Positions 506-15,000 of a DNA stretch of 64,000 nt are shown here, one piece after another (the first letter of the stretch is position 1; each line of letters opens with the position of its first letter). The position numbers and the translations under genes are program-made. The notes under the pieces are model-generated. The model did no database searches, was not told the DNA's origin, and worked only from the letters and a program-made list of their open reading frames with translations. The stretch is from Antedon mediterranea (lineage: Eukaryota; Echinodermata; Crinoidea; Comatulida; Antedonidae), in assembly GCF_964355755.1 (NCBI RefSeq), contig NC_092671.1, forward strand, positions 3,297,001 to 3,361,000. The letters run 5' to 3'.

Positions 506-1927
506 CTAATTGTTCCAAATATCGGGTCGTCGTCTTCGAATCTCGTTCACAACGATATCACGGCGTTCTTTGCGGTCCAGGACGGTAATCGGCGTATAGG
601 AAATATTAAATTCACTCAGAATATCAATTAGTGTTTCAGTGAATACCGTCAATTCCTTCAGAGTTGGTGGCAATCGTATGTCATCTAACTCGATGCACTC
701 TTCATGAGGGTAGACAGCGAAAATTATTGAGTTTTTGTATCTGAAAAAAATAATTATATTTTAATTTATGATAGATTTATTTGTTTATAAGGTTGGTAGG
801 ACCTATTCACATTTATGAGTAGAAACTTTAACGGTTCAAATAAACGTCTTATGAGGTAATAAATGACGTCTATAATGATGTTCTAAAACCCATGACATTA
901 TCGTACGTATTGCAGAAATTTCGACTTGTGGTAACGTGAACTGATCGGATTTAAACGTTTTGACGTTCAAACTCTGTCTACACTATCAAACTTTATGTGA
1001 CGAAAAAATGTGATGTGCTTACTATAGATATGATGATGTCATATCTCTACCATGCATATCTGAGCATATCACTACCATATTTGGGCATATCACTACCATA
1101 TTTGGGCACATCACACCTTTTTGTCAAACTAGTTTGATAGTGTAGACAGAGCTTTAGTTTTTTCCAATTTTCTGAAAAGGTCTAAGAATATCGTGAAAAC
1201 GTGTTTACCTCTCTATGCATTCTTTTACATAAGGTAGTTCCAATAACCTATTCTTTGCATCAACTCCGAGATAGACAGACGTATACACGACGGGGTCGAT
1301 ACTTCTATCTGCTATATAATCACGGTTTGAATCCTCGTTGTTTCGCTCCATTTCACATTGTCCCTTAAAAACCATTCTCTGCATAAATACATAATTTTAT
1401 ATAGATTATTTTAGGATAAATGATACCTTAATTATTTTATTTTAAATAAATATCTTAATTTAAAAATTAAACGCTTGCAATTTGGTACTACGGCGGTGTC
1501 ATCGAACTTTTTGCAGGCATTACAAGCGGCGCGCTTTAGGCTTACTAGAATGCAACGTAACACAAGTAAAGGTTGATCAATTCAAGCGATTGTGATTGTC
1601 GGATCTGTCACTTCTGATTGGGTAATTATTGTGTTGCGCGTACCTACGTCATTTGGGGACGAGGTGCGTTACATCCTTTTCCGCTTATAAGCTGACTTAG
1701 ACAATTATTCATTTACTTACTTGAAACTCTTCAAACACGTCTGGTTTTGTATATGGGTCTCTCTCTTCTATACTCAAATCAAGCTCCCGAATAAGTCTCC
1801 TAGCTATCTCTTCTTCGTAATGAAGACCCACAGGCATTGCCTTAACCACATCCTCCAATAGTGTAGTTTTACCGGTACTGTGAGCCCCACATAAAAACAC
1901 TCTCAATATGTCTCTTTCGTTTGACAT
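506..1927 (-). CDS. NadR/Ttd14-like P-loop NTPase, copy 1
   Basis: Three exons on the minus strand: 1721-1927, 1209-1378 and 506-740. Splice sites are GT-AG, the phase is kept, and the product is 203 aa. Residues 14-21 form a Walker A P-loop (GAHSTGKT). The middle exon carries a DRSIDPVVY motif, like the DRS lid/catalytic motif of nucleoside-kinase-type AAA_28 proteins, and exon 3 has TPITVLDRKER near the C-terminus. These fit a small NadR/Ttd14-like ATP/GTP-binding kinase or NTPase; the substrate is not known. The start is set by the only ATG just before the P-loop strand and by alignment with copy 2. Copy 2 lies 1.6 kb to the right in the same orientation with the same intron positions and an identical 235-bp last exon length, so this is a tandem duplication. 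A possible poly(A) signal (AATAAA on minus) is at 201-206. The family call is good; the biological role is open. Confidence 0.75.
971..1156. mobile_element. MITE family A copy 1
   Basis: Terminal inverted repeats read CTCTGTCTACACTATCAAAC at the left and its complement at the right (GATAGTGTAGACAGAG). The inside holds repeated ATATGGTAG/CTACCATAT and GTGATGTGC blocks. It lies in intron 2 of NTPase copy 1. It is one of 13 copies in the window. No ORF is present. Confidence 0.75.
1543..1665. mobile_element. MITE family B copy (diverged)
   Basis: It has the same order of blocks as the 8524-8656 copy: TGCAACG..., TTGATCAATTC, a spacer, CTGTCACTTCTGATTGG. It lies between exons 1 and 2 of NTPase copy 1 and is more diverged than the other copies. 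Confidence 0.4.
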
Positions 1928-2227
1928 TACCCACGGAAAGATATGGACAGCTCGTCTAGAAGGTATGTACGATGACTGTAGCCTTTAGTAGCCTACTGTA
2001 AACAAAATAAACATGGAAACAAATCCAATACAATTGTTTGTCAATTTCCGGGCAGCAATTTACATATCATGTAGGCCTACCCACCTATTTATCTGAGCTA
2101 TAAAGGCCCTTTTCGTGCTTGCATGACTGTAAAAAAAATCGATATATTGAACCAACAATGCCTATCTGAATATTGATAATGGATGGCGGTTTGTGAATGG
2201 AATTGTGAATAGTGCATTGAATGTTTT

Positions 2228-2238
2228 TGGAAATTCCC
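2228..2238. promoter_or_regulatory. kappaB-like site upstream of NTPase copy 1
   Basis: TGGAAATTCCC differs by one base from the palindromic kappaB consensus GGGAAATTCCC. It lies about 300 bp upstream of the copy 1 start codon (minus strand). Binding is not shown by sequence alone. Confidence 0.35.
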
Positions 2239-2402
2239 AGAGATATCATTGTATCAAAGCTTACCTGACCACGCACCATGGGAAATGATTTACAGAAATT
2301 ATGATAACCTATAACCTAGTATATTTTACAAACTGGTTAATTGTTGACATTAGACACTTCTGTGTAGGTAAAGGTTTAACAAACACGTGACTCTTGTGAT
2401 TT

Positions 2403-2413
2403 GGGAAATTCCC
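2403..2413. promoter_or_regulatory. Perfect palindromic kappaB site upstream of NTPase copy 1
   Basis: GGGAAATTCCC is an exact 11-bp palindrome of the NF-kappaB/Rel type, about 475 bp upstream of the copy 1 start. It has the neighbour site at 2228-2238 in the same setting and shares the flank CAGAGAT with it, so the two sites may be duplicates. Confidence 0.45.
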
Positions 2414-3488
2414 AGAGATTTATTTATATATCATACTCATCAGCCGGCTACCGAGTACATAGTCCTATAATTATACCAATAATATATTGATAATATGTAT
2501 CGTATGTATGATTATTATGCATATCATTGGTAAATATTTAAACATAACCGGCCTGACGGTTTGACGATAACAAATTGAATCCTATTCTGTGTTGTTTTAC
2601 GGCAATCTTCTTTCGTGTTCCGGGACACATCACACTTGTGTCATTATTATATTATGTGCTGGTTGTTGGGAGTACGGCGCGTTAGTGTTGTGTGCAGGTT
2701 TTTTTTAGTATGATTATTATTAAATATTCAATTCAATTCAATAGCGATTTATTCACGCGAATCCAAAGCGTTCGTTTTAAATGCCCCTTGACATCAACAC
2801 GCGTGTCTCCGGAGTTTTGTATGCGATGTGATAGCAATATTGTATTCATATTTTCATTGTCATCTAACGCAAAAGCAATGCAATCAATCAGAACTCATAA
2901 GAATAAACATTTTTAATTATGAAATAATATACATTAATTTGTTGAAAGATTGATTATACATTTATAATAAAATTAATTAAAGTAAATTATATAAGACAAT
3001 AATTATTGCAATTTTTATCTTTGATAAAGATACAACATATTACTATTGTATATGTAGGCCTAATTCCCTTTTGTTAATATCAGTATATCATTAGGTTCAA
3101 GTTCACCGAGTGTCCCCTTAATATATACTTGTCTCTTGAATAAGTGTGTGTACCAGTCTAAGGGGTTCTATCGTAGTTATAATTAAAATAATATAATAGT
3201 ATAGATGTACATTTGGCCCACTAACCTGGCGTAAAAAAACTACCGTATACTACATACGCTTGTATTCAACTTAATTGTAAGTGGTGAACCATGAGTTCAC
3301 TGTTGGTTGGGAAATGAAATAAAAAAAATAAAAAAATAAATAAATAAATTATAATTGCTTAATTGCTTACATCTGTTTATATTATTAATTTAAAAATAAT
3401 GCCTGTACTCTTGGCCCAGTAACGTAAAAAGCTCAATTCATATAATTAATGTTTAAAATATCACTTATTGTATTGAAAACAGTAATTA

Positions 3489-3552
3489 ATTTCTGCAAAA
3501 ACAAATAAACTATTTAAAGTTTGTTTATATAGACTTCAATCGTAATAAAAAA
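3489..3552 (+). repeat. Duplicate of the KIF28 5' leader
   Basis: About 60 bases match 5927-6005, the segment just upstream of and touching the KIF28 start codon. The match runs through blocks such as AACTATTTAAAGT and TATAGACTTCAATCGTAATA. The main difference is a 12-13 base insertion at the KIF28 side. This copy ends about 20 bases from the stop codon of NTPase copy 2. The pair are direct repeats that bracket NTPase copy 2. Confidence 0.8.
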
Positions 3553-3571
3553 AAAATATAGTCTTATGGTT

Positions 3572-5069
3572 TTAATCATCTTCTTCATCAGACAGTTTCT
3601 CTTGAATTTGGTTCACAACAATTTGGCATCGTTCATTGCGGTCCAGGACGGTTATTGGGACGTAGTTAATTTGCAGATGGTCAAGAAGTTGAGTTAATAT
3701 TTCTGTAAATCGTGTTAGTTCGTTCCAAACAGGCGTAATTCTCACACCGTCTTTTTTCATACATTCTTTGTGAGGATGCACGACGAATATTAAGGAGTTT
3801 TTAAACCTAAAAAGAAAAAAAAAATCATTTAAAGAGAGAACAAATATTATTAATATTAGGTAAAATTCCAATGGTCCTCTTGTATAACCTGGCTGGGGCC
3901 GGGCTTAGTTCCGAGTAAAACACATTGTAGCCTAATCTGGACGTAAATGCAACGCAAGTCACGAATTGAACAAACCATAAGTCGATGGATAATCTGAACT
4001 GTCGCTTGTGATTGGTCAACTGACTGACTTCCTAGTGGGAACCATGTTTTATGTCGATTGATGCACGTTCACACGATTACACAGATATCTACGCGGTTGA
4101 ATGTAATCATTTGCGTTCACACGTACCTTTGTATACATTCTTTAGTAACTGGTAGTGACAGCAGGGAGTCTTTCGCCTTGTCACCAAGGTACAATGCAGC
4201 GTACACTACAGGATCAATTCCTCTGTCTGCGATATAGCCCTCTAAATCTTCATTCAATGCGTTTTTACGGTCGACCTCACATTGAGATTCCAATATCAAT
4301 CGCTAAAAAAAAATACCGTAAGTCACTATTATGAAAAATAATGGAAAAAAACTTCACTATACTAACGGTTATTAATGACCGATTCAGAATTGGGGAATGT
4401 CGAGTTTTCGGGTTGGAGGAGGGTGAATTGAAATTGTAGCCTACAGTGTTAGCTTACGCTCAGCTGCAGATAAAACTTAACGAGACCATTTCCATTAGTC
4501 CCAATCATATCTACTCGTTTTACAATAAACGATTAATATCCGCTAATTCCTCTATGGATAAGTTGAGATCTATTAAGCATTCATATGACGTTTTAATAGA
4601 GTTAATGTAACGAAATAAGAAGTTCCTGGTAGACAGGAAATATACATAGTTCAATATGTTTGGAGTTATGAAATAGGCTGTTATTAATATTATTTAAAGA
4701 TGCACTAAAAATGTGCATGTCGAATTAACACGACTCTAGTAGAGTCGTTGCTAAAATGAAATATCAAACGTTAGCCGTTTGACATACTTTTATATCCTTC
4801 TACGTAGGCCTATACTAATTATGCTGTAGTTAGAATAAAACATTAGTATTAGTATTATTTGTTACCTGGAGTTGTTCAAACTTTTCGGGTTGGTTGCGGT
4901 AGTCAATTGCGGTGCGTCTATCTTCTGGACTCATCCCATCCAGTACCTGTCTAGCAATTTCAGATTCCTTTTTGATATCCGGTAATTCTTTGCACACGTC
5001 ACCAAGAAGCGTTGTTTTCCCGGTACTGTGCGCACCACACAAATACACTCGAACTAATCTTCTTTCCAT
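3572..5069 (-). CDS. NadR/Ttd14-like P-loop NTPase, copy 2
   Basis: Three minus-strand exons: 4866-5069, 4127-4302 and 3572-3806, giving 204 aa. Walker A is GAHSTGKT at residues 12-19. The middle exon has DRGIDPVVY and the last exon VPITVLDRNER, both matching copy 1. The C-terminus is acidic (SDEEDD), where copy 1 ends in an arginine-rich tail and then DIWNN. The start at 5069 aligns with copy 1. An in-frame upstream ATG at 5136-5138 would add 23 residues with no counterpart in copy 1 and is less likely. The intron positions are the same as in copy 1. The gene lies between two direct copies of the KIF28 leader (3489-3552 and 5927-6005) and has a kappaB-like site upstream. Function is inferred only as nucleotide-dependent phosphotransfer or NTP hydrolysis. 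Confidence 0.75.
3900..4048. mobile_element. MITE family B copy
   Basis: It begins near GGCTTAGTTCC, ends at CTAGTGGGAACCATG, and has the internal CTGTCGCTTGTGATTGGTCA block shared with 8524-8656. It is inserted in intron 2 of NTPase copy 2. Confidence 0.5.
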
Positions 5070-5249
5070 TTGGATCGTCACTGTCTCTCGGTTTGTGTCT
5101 GTGTGTACGAAACGAATATTTATTGTTATATATGCCACAGAGCCAACAGTGAGTTCTAATGTGACTGGACCGATTACAGTTTCGCTACAGAATGCATGGG
5201 GAGATCAGTTTAGTCATCTTGATAGAATTTATGGCGATGACGCTTGTTT

Positions 5250-6004: not shown

Positions 6005-9000
6005 ATGGCAGAAGAAAGTGTAAAAGTGGCCGTGAGAGTTAGGCCTTTCATATCCTTTTTGTTTGTTTTGGGCAATAGGACGGACGGCGGACACACGTTA
6101 ACTTATTGATTCAAAAGGGAGAGACAGAAAGGCCTACTAAAAAGTAGGCCTAGCCTAGCTAGGTCCAAATAGTCTAAGCTTAGGTCTAGTTAGATAGCCT
6201 CTATGAGATAATATACTTTAGGCTTATTTAAAGAATATTAGACCATGATGATATTAAATAAATGAAATGAATGGCAACAGTAACACAGATAATGAATGAA
6301 TCAAGACTCATGTCATAATTGATTATAATGTAGGCCTAAAATAAATAGATGGCTAGCCTAGAAAGGCCTATAACTTTAATACATTATAAAATAGTATTAG
6401 CTAGGCCTATTAGCTAGGCCTACAGATTTCTAGGTATTGAAGTCCACTTTTAATATTTTTCCTCATGGTGTTATATTTGTATGATGCTAAGGCCAAGTCG
6501 GCCTAGGCCTAGTTAAAAAGGCTATATAGTGCAGTATTTTTTTGATCTTGTTAAATCCTTAATAATTCACACAATTCTCGAGAAAAAGCCAGAAGTGCGC
6601 AGCTGATCATTGGTATGCAAGGGGCGACCACTACGATAAAAAATCCAGCTGCGCCGAATGAAGATCCCAGGAAATTTAACTTCGACCACAGTTATTGGTC
6701 ACATGACGGGTTTGAGGAAGATGCTGATGGTTACTTGAAACCTGTTTCACCACGATATGCAGATCAGGTAAAAGCACAATTCTTAAAATACAAGTCTCCC
6801 TCCAATTAAAGACCGCTGTACTGCAGCCCTGGATGATTGCTCATCTTTTACCATTTTCTGATTAATATACACATACTGTACATTACATTCTAATTTCATT
6901 CTGGTTTTTTTAGAAACTAGTGTTTAATGATCTTGGTAATGGAGTGTTGAAGAATGCATGGGAAGGCTATAACTGTTCCTTGTTTGCTTATGGACAGACA
7001 GGCTCTGGGAAGTCTTACTCCGTTGTTGGTTATGGTGCAAACAAAGGTAGTGTGTCTAAAGTTCTGCCTTGACGCAAAAGACATTGTTGGTATTTTTTAT
7101 CTACATTCGTTGGCTTAGATCATGACACATAATAGGATAAAACATCCTATTCATTTGTGTACATTTTTTTCTCTTCTTTATTTTCAGATACACATATTTC
7201 TCTGTTTAGGGATAACATGCCAATGTGTTTAACAATAACACTATAAAAAAAAAACCATACAAAAAATGATTGAGCAAAAACATGTTATGCTATTCTCAAT
7301 GTCACTTTCATCATTCAGAAGTTATGAAACTAAAAATTAATAAATTCAAATAATAAATACTTTAATCAAAAAGAGAATTACATAATTATTTATTGTTTTT
7401 ATTTACACTTCCAGGAATTGTTCCGATGTTCTGCAATCAGATTTTTGTCGGTATCAATGAGAAGAAGTCGGAAGGTGTGAAAACAGAATACGAGGTCAGC
7501 TTTAGTATGCTCGAGATCTACAATGAGCAGGTCCGAGATCTTTTGTCGCCGTCCAGCAATAAGAAGGGAGGCCTTCGGGTCAGGGAGCATCCAAAAAAGG
7601 GCTTTTACGGTTAGAGATATTATCAGTAGTTAGAATATTCTAACCTAAAATAGGAATTGTCATTTTTTTTTAAATAAGTGTTTTAATACAGTGAGTGCTG
7701 AGCACAGAATAGCTGTCTGGCTCTTTCAATCAATCAATCAATCAATCAAAATAATATTTATTTCCTTAATTCATAAACAAACATAATTTCTTACAATATA
7801 CAAACATGCATGAAGGAGGCACAGATTTCAAGAAGCAAACTTTGTGCTGGAAGTACGTGCCAACAGAAAATAATACTAAAAAAATGCAATTTAATAACAA
7901 TTCAGTACATGAATAAAAGTAACACAAAACTACAGATAACCTTCAAAATAAGAAATACCATATAATTTTATGACCAAGTATAGTCCCAGGGGCCTGATTA
8001 TGAAATTTTGCAAATACTTGAATTGCATTACCAATGGATTTACCAAATTCTTGTTAACCCTAAATTAAGGAGTGGGATTACAATCATTATATACAATGCT
8101 GGAATGTATTCTTTATCATAGTTTAAATGTGTTATGGTATGAATAATCATATATTTGCATTACATAGCTGAGGGGTTGCGTACTGTCCCAGTCAATAGCT
8201 ACAATGACATTGAAAACCGAATGGAAGAAGGAACGCGTAACAGAACCGTGGCAGCAACACAGATGAACGCCACAAGTAGTCGTGCTCATACTATTGTAGG
8301 TGTTACGTTTACCCAGAAGTCTTTCAATGACGCCGGGCAAGAAATGGCTAAGGTGTCCATCATTAATCTGGTCGATTTGGCAGGAAGGTACAGTAACGAC
8401 CTCCATTTATCATTGAATAGCTTAAGGGTCTACAGGTCATAGGAAATACACCTCTTTTCTATACCCTATAGTACACTCACACCAACTGCAACCAATTTAA
8501 GACTGCACTCTTTTGCCGTATTGAAGCTTGGTTCCCACTAGGAACCAATGCAAGGACAGAAGGCGCAATGCAAGCAAATTGACCAATCACGATCGATGGA
8601 TTATTCGAACTGTCGCTTGTAATTGGCCAATTCGCTCTTAGTGGGAACTAAGCTTAAGAAGGGACACTCACACTCGGAATATTGTAGGCATTTGTTCTTC
8701 TAAGTTAGAAGAGATTTTGGAATTTTGATAATTGCAAATGTCAATCCATATGTTTGACTAAATATTTGTTATTCTAGATTTTTGTACTAGTAAAACCTTA
8801 TTTGCAATACACATATAATTCATGTTTCCCAACAGTGAGAGGGCTGATTCAACTGGCGCTACCGGAGATCGACTGAAAGAGGGAGCTGCAATTAACCAAT
8901 CCCTTTCGGCTCTTGGTAACGTTATCGCAGCACTTGCAGATGCTAGTTCAGGGAAGAGAGTCAAGGGTAAGTTCATAATCTCTGAACAATTATCAAAACA

Positions 9001-12000
9001 GTTTATAGAGATAATATTACAATATTTGTTTTTAAATAATTTATTCTAAAAGTAAAATGTTTTTAATGTAGTTCCGTACAGAGACTCAGTGTTAACTAGA
9101 CTGTTGAAGAACGCCCTCGGTGGAAACAGCAAGACTATAATGATCGCAGCTCTCAGTCCTGCAGATATTAACTATGATGAGACACTTTCAACATTAAGAT
9201 ATGGTAAACTGTCTTTATTTTTCTAAACTATGTAGTCAATATATATTAAAGCTATTTTTAGCTATCTTTCTAAAATTGAACTAATGTCACAATACCCAGA
9301 TATAACATTTCATATATTTACGTATTTGTATCACCAAAATGTTTGTTTTTTTTGTAGCTGATCGTGCGAAACAAATCAAAACAAAGGCGGTCGTAAACGA
9401 GGATCCAACTGAAAAATTGATTCGTGAATTGAAGGAGGAAAATGAGAAACTGCGAGCTGCGTTGAAAACAGGTGGTGTGATCTCGATGACGGCAGATGAT
9501 GATGACGATGACAAGAAGGGAGGAGGTACTGTATGTTTAGATGATTTAGTAATTAAAACGAGATCAAAGTATCATTCATACTGTAAAAGTGATAAAGAAA
9601 ACCTAGGCCCACAGAACTGACTAGTAATTCTGGACCCTCTTTCCTGTGAGAGAGTGGAATGAATTAGAGAAGTTTTTTCGTTTTAATTTAACACTATTTT
9701 GAAAACATTATTTTGTTGTCAGATGTTGACGCTATCAGAAAACAACTGGAGGAAGAGATGAAAGCAGTGTTAGAAGCCAATGAACGAGAAATGGAACAGA
9801 TGAAACAGACCTGGCAGGAGAAATTAGACAGCTCAGCTGTAAGTTACATAAATCTGCTCCACATAATCCATAAAAATACAGTAGATCCTCAACCTTCTGC
9901 TGATTCTGGTAATGCCAACAAACAAAATTTACAACTTGTTTCAATTCTCAGGGAGGTGATGATGGTGAACAAGCTAAAAAAGAGGAACGCAAGACCACAC
10001 CACATATTTCCAATTTGAACATAGATAATCAGCTGTCTGGTATGATAGTGCATATAATAAGGGAAGGAACGCTGAAGGTTGGAAGTAGCAAGGCTAGCCC
10101 ACCAGCAGACATTGTCTTATCAGGCTTAGGGTAGGTAGAATTAACAACCTGAAATTCATAATCAATTTTAATCCTACCACAATTATCATCCAAAGCATCA
10201 TCAGTGTTTCAATATAACATTGTCATCATTGTTATTATTTCTGACTTTTCTAACATGACAGCGTAAAGTCTGGTTTTCATAAGATTCTAGGAAGTTTGGT
10301 TTAACAACATGCGAGAATCTCGCCAATTACAGAATGGATAAATTATTTAATAATTGGTCGTGCTTATAAACTAAGTCTCATTTGAAGCTTAGGGAGTGGA
10401 GTTCAAAGAGGAGTGAGTTACAACCCTGACACTAGGTCAGGATTGAATCCAGGACCTTGGTATTGGAAGGCAAGCATGTTAACCCCCAAGCTAAAGCTCC
10501 ACTACCATTATTATATTAATTTGATTGTACTATTCTTAATAGTGACATATTTTTACATAATTTGAATCAATTAATTTATTTTCTATTTTAGCATACAACC
10601 AGATCATGCGTTGTTCTCAGTTGAAAAAGGAAGCATCTTCCTTGAGAAAGTTGCAGACGGCAAAGTGCTGTTAAATGGGGAACCACTCACTTCAAAACAA
10701 CAGCTGGATCACAATGACAGGTAATCAATCAATCAATCAATTAATTATTTAATTGATAATTTGATTGATAAATTGTTCAATCAATAATTTAATTGATCAA
10801 TCAATAGATAACCAATAAACGATTAAATCAATCAATCAATACTGGATAACCAATAAATCATTCAATGATCAATCAACAGATAACCAATAAATCAATCAAT
10901 GATCAATCAACAGATAACCAATAAATCAATCAATCAGTAGGTATATCAGTCAATGAATAAATGATCAATCAATTAATTTATCAATCAATTCATGGATTGA
11001 TCAAAATAGGGTTTATCAATCCTGGAATTGGTATGTTGCTTGCTGTTGTATGTGTATAATTAAAAATAAAGAAAATAAAAATGGATTAATCGATACATTT
11101 ATCAATCAATTAATAAATTGATAAAAAATTTATCAATCAATAACATGTCAAAGGGTAAATAAAAATAAATATTTGTTTTTTTAGGATCATGTTTGGTTCA
11201 AATCATCTGTATGTATTCCAACACCCAGCGTTAAAGAATGCAAATCCTGGTAATTACAAGGTACCAGTTACGTACGAAATGGCTCAACAAGAGATAGCAA
11301 AGAACAATGGGTTTGATATGTCATCTAAGCAGTCAGCAGGTAAGAATATAAAGGAGTGAAGTTGGAAAATAAACTCTACTGACTAATTAAAATAATAATG
11401 ATGTGCTCTCATCTCAGGATGATATTCCATCTGGAAAGCATCTTTGACTTATATAAGACATTTTATGATCCAGCTGATGGAGATATGATGTGGATGATTA
11501 TGAGAATAAGCCTTATGATCACATGTCATTCCTCAATTCCATTAACATTCATCATTCTTTCTTTTTCATATCTTCAGAGGAAATGCTGTTACAAGAAGAT
11601 CTTGTTGACTTGATACCTGCTGTGGAAGAGGCTAACACAATAAGTGAAGAGCTGGATAAGAAGGTTAAGTTTGAGATTGTTGTTATCTCACCTAAAGCTA
11701 GAGGGCTCACTCATGGCAGAACAGAGGTATGTTACTGTACAAGTTTTGTATTTATTGCTGTATGCTCTTTGTCGCAAGAAAATCTACAGTTGACGAAAGT
11801 ACCCCTGTCTATCATCCTTTCTTCCAACCCATTTGTGACTTCAAATTGGCGTTGCGAAGCTTTTAATATGCCTAGACCAAGACAGCAGAAAACAACAGGT
11901 TTAATTGCATTACTTTCCAATATTTTACTAGGTTTGTGTGAAAATGCGCAACTTGGAATCGGGGTATGAGTACATTTGGACGCGTGACAAATTCCAACGG

Positions 12001-15000
12001 CGCAAGTATCTGATGCAAGAGATGTACCAGAACTTTGTTGAGGGTGAAGAATGGAAGCTGCCAGATGTATGTCATTTTAAAATGTTTTTAGATTATTCGT
12101 ATCTGCATATCATGTGAAAATGAAGTCTATTTCATATTCTAACCACAGGACAAATATAATAATAATATTTTTGTTTTAATTGTAGGAGAAAGATCCATTT
12201 ACTGTAGCGCCAAACACAGAAGTGCAAATTGGACATGTGAACATATACCTACAGAGTTTGTCTTATCTGGTAAGAATAATGATAAATTGTTGGCTGATCA
12301 AAACTGTCTTGTTGAATCTCAATGGTCTGGAAGAGAAGTTCTGCCTTGGCCCACAAAATAATTAGTTTTTGTTCTTGATCACCCATTTGTTAATTATCAT
12401 TCAAGAAAAGTAGTGAGGGTGCTTTGTTAGCTTTGAAAAATAGTTGTCTAGATAGATTGAATCACAGCTACAGTAATTGTGGTTTTGGATTGAATCTCAA
12501 TCATTAAAGCTGACTGTTAATCTTATGACAGATTGAGTGTTTTGATTAAAATCAGTAAGATCAACTTTTGATACATTAATTGTCAACCATTAACTAATAA
12601 TAAGTTCAAAGTTCAAATAAGTTTAAATCTCAATCATTAAGACTTGGATAGTCTTAAAACTGTTATTTTTTATAGACTGAATCTCAAACATTCAGACTTA
12701 AGTGTAATTTTAATCTTGCACATAGATTAAATTTCAATCATTAAGACTTAGGTTAGTCTTAAATCTCATATTCTTGATAGATTGAACTAAAAGACAGTCT
12801 TGATGTTAGTGATGTAAAAGGCAAAGATGTTGGAATCATGGATGTGGAGATAATCCCATGCAACTCTAAAGGCAAGGAGCTGACAGAAGCAGACGACGTG
12901 TTTGTTGACGACCCCAAAGACCTTATTTCGGCCAGTGTTAACTTTGTTGTTAAAATACGATCCATCACAGGCCTACCAAACATGTATACGGTAAGTGTCT
13001 ATTAAGCTACCACAGAGGGTTATTCGATATCTTTATTCACAAAACACATCCATAACAAAATATTGAATAGGTGTATTTTTGTGCTGAGGTTAAAAAATAG
13101 TTCAAAAATGAAAAACACAGAGACTATAATGCACATAAAAAATGTATTTGTAGAAAAATTAAAAGCAAATCAGGCTATGTTTCAATGTTTGAAATATATT
13201 TCAAAGGCTATACTGTATTTTGTCATAAAGCATAAATTCTGAAGCTGAAAATGGTAAATTTTGGTATAAAAATTATAGTCCCACGATAGCCTCCTGCATA
13301 AATGTAAGTCAAGATTTGTGAACACAGTCATTTTTAAGCAAGCATGCTCATACTGTACTACAGCTAGTCAACAAAGAATGTTATCAGAGAAAACGTGTCT
13401 ATTTTTTCTGCAGGACGTGTACTGCAAATATGATATGTTTCTTGATGCTGAATCCACAAAGACGGAAGTAATCCCAAATACGAGTAACCCAGAGTTCAAA
13501 CACAGAAAGAACTTCTCTTTTAATCCTGCAACGTCTCAGGTAATAGTTAGCAAATATTGTCAGAGAAAAACTGAATAATCTTTGCAATTATTGAAATAAA
13601 TACTTAACTTGGCTAATAGAAATTCATAAGGATATTTTACTATCTAAGAGAACGAGTTCCCAAATATGGTAAAAAAAACCGTTTTTGAAGACTAATGCTG
13701 AAGTTAATTTTAATTTTCATTGACTGTAGCTTGTGGACTATCTGTCTAACGGAGTATTAGCTGTGCAAGTGTGGGGCAAATACAAATTCAAAGAAGCATC
13801 ACAACGGCAAAAGAACATGAACACTAAACAGATGGTGATGTCAGAAACATTGGCAAAGGGTCGCGACCTCAATACCAATGCTAACAAGGTAAGAAGAGAC
13901 TTAACACAGTGGTTCTGTGAAATCATCTTCATACTATAAGAGTGGTTTAGATATGGTCTCACAATCATCACTCCACCTATCTTCTTTCTATTAATAAATA
14001 TTGACACGTTGTCAACATAACAAGACTTAATTTAACTACTACTAAAAAATGTGATAAAACCGTAATTTAAATCTTGATATGTGATGTTTTTATTCCAGAC
14101 TAGTGATCCGGACAAAGTAGCTCTTCGTTTTCAACTGATAGCTTTGAAGAAACGACAGGAAAGGCTTGTTGTTAAACTGGTACGTAACAGTAGTCACTTA
14201 TGATGCCAAATGTGATGTATTCCTATCATACTGGAAAAATCTAAATATAGTACCGAAAATCAGTTGATGTCCAATGGCAGTTGGGCTAAATAACTTTTAC
14301 TTATTCTTCAACATGAATCATTCTTTGTTATACAAATTGTATTGTTTTAAATTAATTATTAAATATTGATTAATATTTTAGTCCCAGGTTCAACGATGCG
14401 TGCAGGTAGCAGAGGAGCATAAGAAGGTTAGAATCCCAACTGCTGTGGTGAAGCAAGTGCTGAACGATCAGAATCCTAAGAGAGTTGAGAGTGCTATCAA
14501 TAAGATCCCACAGGATGATGGTGCTGGAGTTCCTAGTAAGTACCGTCTTACATCATTGTTACTTAGTGTTATCATAGACCTGTATTCACTAATAGCGAGT
14601 GTCAAGAGTAGAGTATAGGACGAAAGTGTAGTTGAGTTTGAAGAAATTAAGTACCCCTAACGCTCTGTCTACACTATCAAACTTGCTTGACAAAAACGTT
14701 TGATGTGCCCAAATATGGTAGTGATATACCAAAATATAGTAGTGTTGTCACATAAAGTTTGATAGTGTAGACAGAGCTTAGGCAGTAGTTTAATTGGAAG
14801 CGAGATTGAATTGTAACTGGTATGGTGAAAGGCAGCAGCGTAACACAGTGGGAAAAGGCCCTTGGTTTAGCCCTTGTTGCATTGGACTGCTCATGCTTTG
14901 GTGCTCCTGGGTTTAACCAGTGAGCGCTCATAGCCATTTAAGTATTTAGTAAGAAAGTTAAATCTCTCTAAAGGAGAAGTTTTCTTATTTTGAGTTAAGT

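What the first reader, a model, noticed from the sequence alone, without database searches (positions are those of the whole stretch)
6050..6572. U12-dependent AT-AC intron as the first intron of a KIF28-like kinesin
The donor ATATCCTTT is a perfect minor-spliceosome AT-AC donor. A TCCTTAAT branch-site match lies 11-12 bases before a CAC acceptor. AT-AC joining is the only way to continue VRVRPF into NSREKAR. AT-AC introns are a very small fraction of animal introns, and this one interrupts the first beta strand of the motor. Whether the position is conserved in other kinesin-3 genes is unknown to me.
Basis: partly seen in the sequence, partly recalled or inferred. Interest (0 to 1): 0.6.

Follow-up and report, generated by a model that had tools for sequence, protein, structure and literature searches.

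The report
Minor-spliceosome AT-AC intron in KIF28-like kinesin
The first coding intron of this animal kinesin gene is a textbook example of the rare intron class removed by the minor spliceosome; a second, distant copy of the gene keeps the same rare intron at the same codon, while a third relative has an ordinary intron 8 bases further on, which makes the family a good case for asking how rare introns arise.

Summary
Exon 1 (6005-6049, [15 protein letters not shown]) and exon 2 (6573-6767, NSREKAR...) are separated by a 523-base intron, ATATCCTTTTTG...AAATCCTTAATAATTCACAC, with U12-type donor, branch site and AC end. Only three junctions restore the kinesin protein (CA-CA, AT-AC, TA-CA); AT-AC is the only recognised pair, and no GT-AG junction does it. 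The genome encodes all four minor snRNAs. The gene is a KIF28/KLP-6-type kinesin-3.

New here: of eight kinesin-3 genes found in this genome, three are KIF28/KLP-6-like. A second one (contig C1, 72% identical motor) has the same AT-AC U12 intron at the same codon boundary, with its own perfect donor and TCCTTGAC branch site, so the two most likely share it by descent. The third (C8) and three other kinesin-3 genes instead have an ordinary GT-AG intron exactly 8 bases downstream (codon 18, phase 2), which looks ancestral; the KIF1-like gene has neither. The AT-AC intron may therefore have been gained inside the KIF28 lineage, notable because minor-intron gains are hardly documented. The direction is unproven: the tree inside KIF28 is unresolved, and no other animal's gene could be read. 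No RNA evidence was available.

The parts
6005..6049 (+). exon 1 coding part, [15 protein letters not shown] (end of motor beta-1)
   Evidence: matches KLP-6 and KIF1A N-termini
6050..6572 (+). U12-type AT-AC intron, phase 0, 523 nt
6050..6058 (+). U12-type donor ATATCCTTT; predicted to pair with U6atac (-7.5 kcal/mol) but not U1 (+1.6)
6556..6563 (+). U12-type branch-site match TCCTTAAT; complementary to the GTAAGGA element of U12
6571..6572 (+). AC 3' splice site
6573..6767 (+). exon 2, [10 protein letters not shown]...RYADQ; followed by GT-AG intron 6768-6913
6914..7046 (+). exon 3 (P-loop GQTGSGKS), GT-AG intron 7047-7414 follows
7415..7609 (+). exon 4, GT-AG intron 7610-8167 follows
8168..8387 (+). 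exon 5 (NATSSRAHT...NLVDLAG), GT-AG intron 8388-8835 follows
8836..14530 (+). rest of the KIF28/KLP-6-like gene (end of motor, coiled coil, FHA, tail); approximate extent

Best explanation
The segment is a genuine U12-type intron of the AT-AC subtype in the motor domain of a KIF28/KLP-6-type kinesin-3. In pre-mRNA, U11 and then U6atac pair with the ATATCCTTT donor, U12 pairs with TCCTTAAT and bulges a branch adenosine, and the minor spliceosome joins base 6049 to 6573, restoring VRVRPF-NSREKAR. The other motor introns examined are ordinary GT-AG introns. Shown: sequence signals, coding junction, presence of all four minor snRNA genes, and the same intron in a second KIF28-like gene. Inferred: that it is actually spliced this way in cells, and that, being a minor intron, it may be removed slowly and could limit expression of the motor. 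Evolution (inferred): the intron was already present in the common ancestor of the C2 and C1 copies, and probably replaced an older GT-AG intron 8 nt downstream that the C8 copy and other kinesin-3 genes still have.
For: Signals and coordinates; AT-AC is the only recognised dinucleotide pair that gives the protein; the C1 paralogue has [26 protein letters not shown]...ATTCCTTGACAAAACAAAATCAC|NDREKNR, 3915-nt intron, same phase-0 position; U6atac 136.6 bits, U12 125.7 bits, U11 88.6 and 82.9 bits, U4atac 97.6 bits in the same genome, with AAGGA, GTAAGGA and AAAAAGG recognition elements readable; donors of this gene and the C1 copy pair with U6atac and not U1, the reverse for the six other kinesin-3 donors; KLP-6 is the best solved-structure match to motor (522.8 bits v 429 for KIF1A) and tail (324 bits).
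Against: No RNA-seq or cDNA could be read, so splicing is predicted. U11 and U12 duplex energies do not separate the classes clearly (U11 pairs as well with some GT donors; two control acceptors score about -6 with U12). The branch-to-3'ss distance of 10-11 nt is at the short edge of the 11-13 nt optimum given in PMC3584512.
Confidence: 0.95

Rival explanations
1. The AT-AC termini belong to a U2-type (major spliceosome) AT-AC intron.
For: Such introns exist (Wu and Krainer 1997, cited in PMC3584512).
Against: Full U12 donor ATATCCTTT, predicted U1 pairing +1.6 kcal/mol v U6atac -7.5, a TCCTTRAY branch site 10-11 nt from the end, repeated in the C1 copy.
Confidence: 0.02
2. The join is different in vivo (another junction, or exon 1 is not part of the transcript), so the AT-AC reading is an artefact of forcing homology.
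For: No transcript data; 22 in-frame GT/GC-AG pairs exist.
Against: All of those destroy the conserved VRVRPFNSRE core; the independent C1 gene shows the same arrangement.
Confidence: 0.03
3. Evolutionary rival to a gain: the AT-AC intron is the ancestral state of the KIF28 family and the C8 copy lost it, its codon-18 GT-AG intron being regained or acquired by gene conversion.
For: Minor-intron loss is far commoner than gain (PMC2831892, PMC10639083); the tree inside KIF28 is unresolved.
Against: C8's codon-18 phase-2 GT-AG intron sits exactly where the C4, C10:14.6 and C10:17.8 kinesin-3 genes have theirs, so C8 most simply keeps the old intron.
Confidence: 0.3

Closest known systems
U12-type AT-AC introns (minor introns) of animals, e.g. 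those of voltage-gated ion-channel genes
   Different: Host gene (KIF28/KLP-6 kinesin): no paper found in the searches made here reports a minor intron in it. Phase 0, which PMC10639083 gives as about 22% of minor introns.
First coding GT-AG intron at codon 18, phase 2, of other kinesin-3 genes in this genome (C8, C4, C10 x2)
   Same: Same region of the motor, 8 nt away.
   Different: Major-class splice sites and a different exact position.
Twintrons (major intron nested in a minor intron, e.g. prospero; PMC3564746, PMC6865273)
   Same: Two intron classes near the same gene position.
   Different: Here the two classes are in different paralogues, offset by 8 nt at both ends, not nested in one gene.

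Membership tests
U12-type intron, AT-AC subtype | ATATCCTTT donor | tested here: met
   6050-6058 perfect
U12-type intron, AT-AC subtype | TCCTTRAY branch site near the 3' splice site (optimum 11-13 nt, PMC3584512) | tested here: met
   TCCTTAAT, 10-11 nt to the end; C1 copy TCCTTGAC, 14 nt
U12-type intron, AT-AC subtype | AC terminus joined in frame | tested here: met
U12-type intron, AT-AC subtype | organism has the minor spliceosome snRNAs | tested here: met
U12-type intron, AT-AC subtype | excision depends on U12/U6atac in cells | not testable with these tools
   needs RNA-seq and depletion
KIF28/KLP-6 kinesin-3 | N-terminal kinesin motor closest to KLP-6 | tested here: met
   PF00225 348.6 bits; 7wrg 522.8 bits v KIF1A 429; clade with KLP-6 100/100
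KIF28/KLP-6 kinesin-3 | FHA domain and KLP-6-like tail (MBS, MATH) | tested here: met
   FHA PF00498 33.1 bits; tail aligns with KLP-6 366-902
KIF28/KLP-6 kinesin-3 | one-to-one orthology with vertebrate KIF28 | not testable with these tools
   no vertebrate KIF28 sequence available; three KIF28-like genes in this genome

The most novel reading that the evidence does not exclude
The AT-AC minor intron was gained within the KIF28 branch of kinesin-3, after the split from the C8 copy and with the old GT-AG intron 8 nt downstream lost (or displaced and converted to the minor class). That would be one of very few clear minor-intron gains in animals and against the usually assumed minor-to-major direction.
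Probability: 0.4. Interest if true: 0.55.

Novelty: new member of a known kind. Interest (0 to 1): 0.38.

Why it matters
[quoted passage not shown] A gene family in one genome with AT-AC in two members and an ordinary intron 8 nt away in the third and in other kinesin-3 genes gives a concrete, cheap test of whether a minor intron was gained, slid or merely kept. It also adds the KIF28/KLP-6 motor family to genes whose expression may depend on the minor spliceosome.

Tried and rejected
GT-AG or GC-AG junctions giving the same protein: none. Chance donor: rejected because of codon placement and the C1 copy. A possible third kinesin with RPF|ATATCCTT at C7:28364030: no kinesin context. Sharing with all kinesin-3 genes: rejected, the others have a GT donor at or near codon 18, or no intron there. 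Q80|K81 intron as a feature shared with the C10 genes: rejected, theirs lies two codons later. Resolving the KIF28 branching order with AU tests: inconclusive, the three pairings give p 0.26, 0.36 and 0.06. C8 tail for a longer alignment: not found within 18 kb or by a genome search. Papers linking kinesin or KIF28 to minor introns: none relevant found.

Full report
What is there. Exon 1 of the gene reads [15 protein letters not shown] (6005-6049). It is followed by ATATCCTTTTTG and, 523 bases on, by ...GTTAAATCCTTAATAATTCACAC, then exon 2 AATTCTCGAGAAAAAGCC = NSREKA. The donor is a perfect U12-type AT donor, the branch-site match TCCTTAAT lies at 6556-6563 with candidate branch adenosines 10-11 nt from the end, and the intron ends in CAC. 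The other four motor introns read in full are GT-AG (the last of them ends at 8835).

Uniqueness of the junction. I enumerated donor/acceptor pairs around both ends. Only three give the kinesin protein, because the flanks share single bases: CA-CA, AT-AC and TA-CA. No GT-AG or GC-AG pair does. Twenty-two GT/GC-AG pairs stay in frame but delete or replace part of VRVRPFNSREKAR.

Chance. Donor-like 9-mers alone are not rare (three ATATCCTTT in both strands of the window). The combined pattern of an Arg/Ser-Pro-x codon context ending in RTATCCTT occurs 18 times in the 354-Mb genome. Sixteen have no kinesin context; two are this gene and a gene on contig C1, at the same codon.

The C1 paralogue. 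On C1 (minus strand, exon 1 near 32,118,772) a second gene reads [28 protein letters not shown] ... ATTCCTTGACAAAACAAAATCAC|AATGATCGAGAAAAG = NDREKNR, intron 3915 nt. Its motor is 72% identical to this one over 359 aligned positions. The motor exons found are open, and most of the tail exons were found. Same position, phase, class and subtype in two old duplicates is best explained by descent, and it makes a sequencing or annotation accident very unlikely.

Machinery. The same genome encodes U6atac (136.6 bits), U12 (125.7), U11 (two, 88.6 and 82.9) and U4atac (97.6), all above Rfam's cut-offs. Their recognition elements are readable: GAAAGGAGAG in U6atac, GAGTAAGGAAAA in U12, AAAAAGGGC at the start of U11. 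Duplex energies: the two AT donors pair with U6atac (-7.5, -7.6 kcal/mol) and not with U1 (+1.6), and the six other kinesin-3 donors show the opposite (the U1 sequence there is the textbook 5' end, not read from this genome). The U11 and U12 energies discriminate poorly and I do not lean on them.

The gene. The conceptual motor matches KLP-6 (7wrg) at 522.8 bits against 429 for KIF1A. The tail aligns along KLP-6 residues 366-902, with a Pfam FHA domain. A tree of ten motors puts it in a KIF28/KLP-6 clade at 100/100. 'KIF28-like' is therefore sound; strict orthology with vertebrate KIF28 was not testable.

Other kinesin-3 genes. A pattern for VKVAVRxRP finds eight genes. C2 (this gene) and C1 have AT-AC at F15|N16, phase 0. 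C8, itself KIF28/KLP-6-like (528.7 bits to this protein v 378.1 to KIF1A), has NSR with GT-AG at codon 18, phase 2, exactly 8 nt downstream; its acceptor was read too. C4 and both C10 genes have donors at the same codon-18 phase-2 position, with the C4 acceptor also read. C1:7.42 has a GT donor 2 nt further on. The KIF1-like C3 gene runs through without an intron there. The codon-18 GT-AG intron therefore looks ancestral to kinesin-3, and the AT-AC intron looks restricted to part of KIF28.

Interpretation of the history. The best tree places C8 as the first branch of the KIF28 clade, with C2, C1 and KLP-6 together (support 66/87), but AU tests do not reject the alternatives. If that order is right, the minor intron arose after C8 split off and the old intron was lost; C. 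elegans, which lacks minor introns (PMC3584512), would have lost it again. The opposite history (AT-AC ancestral to KIF28, C8 reverted) needs a GT-AG intron to reappear at exactly the ancestral base. Sliding by 8 nt with class change would need matched changes at both ends. I put the gain at about 0.4, given how rare gains are held to be (PMC2831892; PMC10639083; PMC6865273, proposes more candidates).

Mechanism. The excision route is textbook (PMC3584512 and general knowledge): U11/U12 recognition, U6atac replacing U11 at the donor, U12 at the branch site. A rate-limiting role of this intron in making the motor is possible and untested.

Limits. No transcript data, no other animal's KIF28 gene, species not named to me. 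The literature search covers only open papers and no supplementary lists of minor-intron genes, so 'not reported in KIF28' is weak.

Noticed in passing
G000:C8:23424000-23448510 (L051, L056): Third KIF28/KLP-6-like gene with a major-class first intron at codon 18 phase 2; its FHA/tail exons were not found within about 18 kb downstream of the coiled-coil exon or by a genome search, so the tail may be very distant, divergent or missing.
   Followed up: partly
window 506-5204, minus strand: At least two neighbouring copies of a small P-loop gene (VRVYLCGAHSTGKTTLLGDV, VFLCGAHSTGKTTLLEDV), weakly AAA_28-like and below the Pfam cut-off, apparently tandem duplicates upstream of the kinesin gene.
   Followed up: partly
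G000:C1:32114000-32118500 (L020): The C1 copy's AT-AC intron is 3.9 kb, against 0.5 kb here, and contains stretches that recur in it and in the next intron (for example GGTATCCCTTTGTACGAATCGTTCAACG), which look like inserted repeats.
   Followed up: no
window 6767/6768; L025 and L052 genes: The second intron of this gene and the C1 copy (Q80|K81, phase 0) lies 6 nt upstream of the corresponding intron of the C10:17.8 kinesin-3 gene, so two successive introns are each displaced by a few bases.
   Followed up: partly
window 6120-6520: The intron is rich in the palindrome AGGCCT/TAGGCCTA, also frequent in the C1 copy's intron.
   Followed up: no
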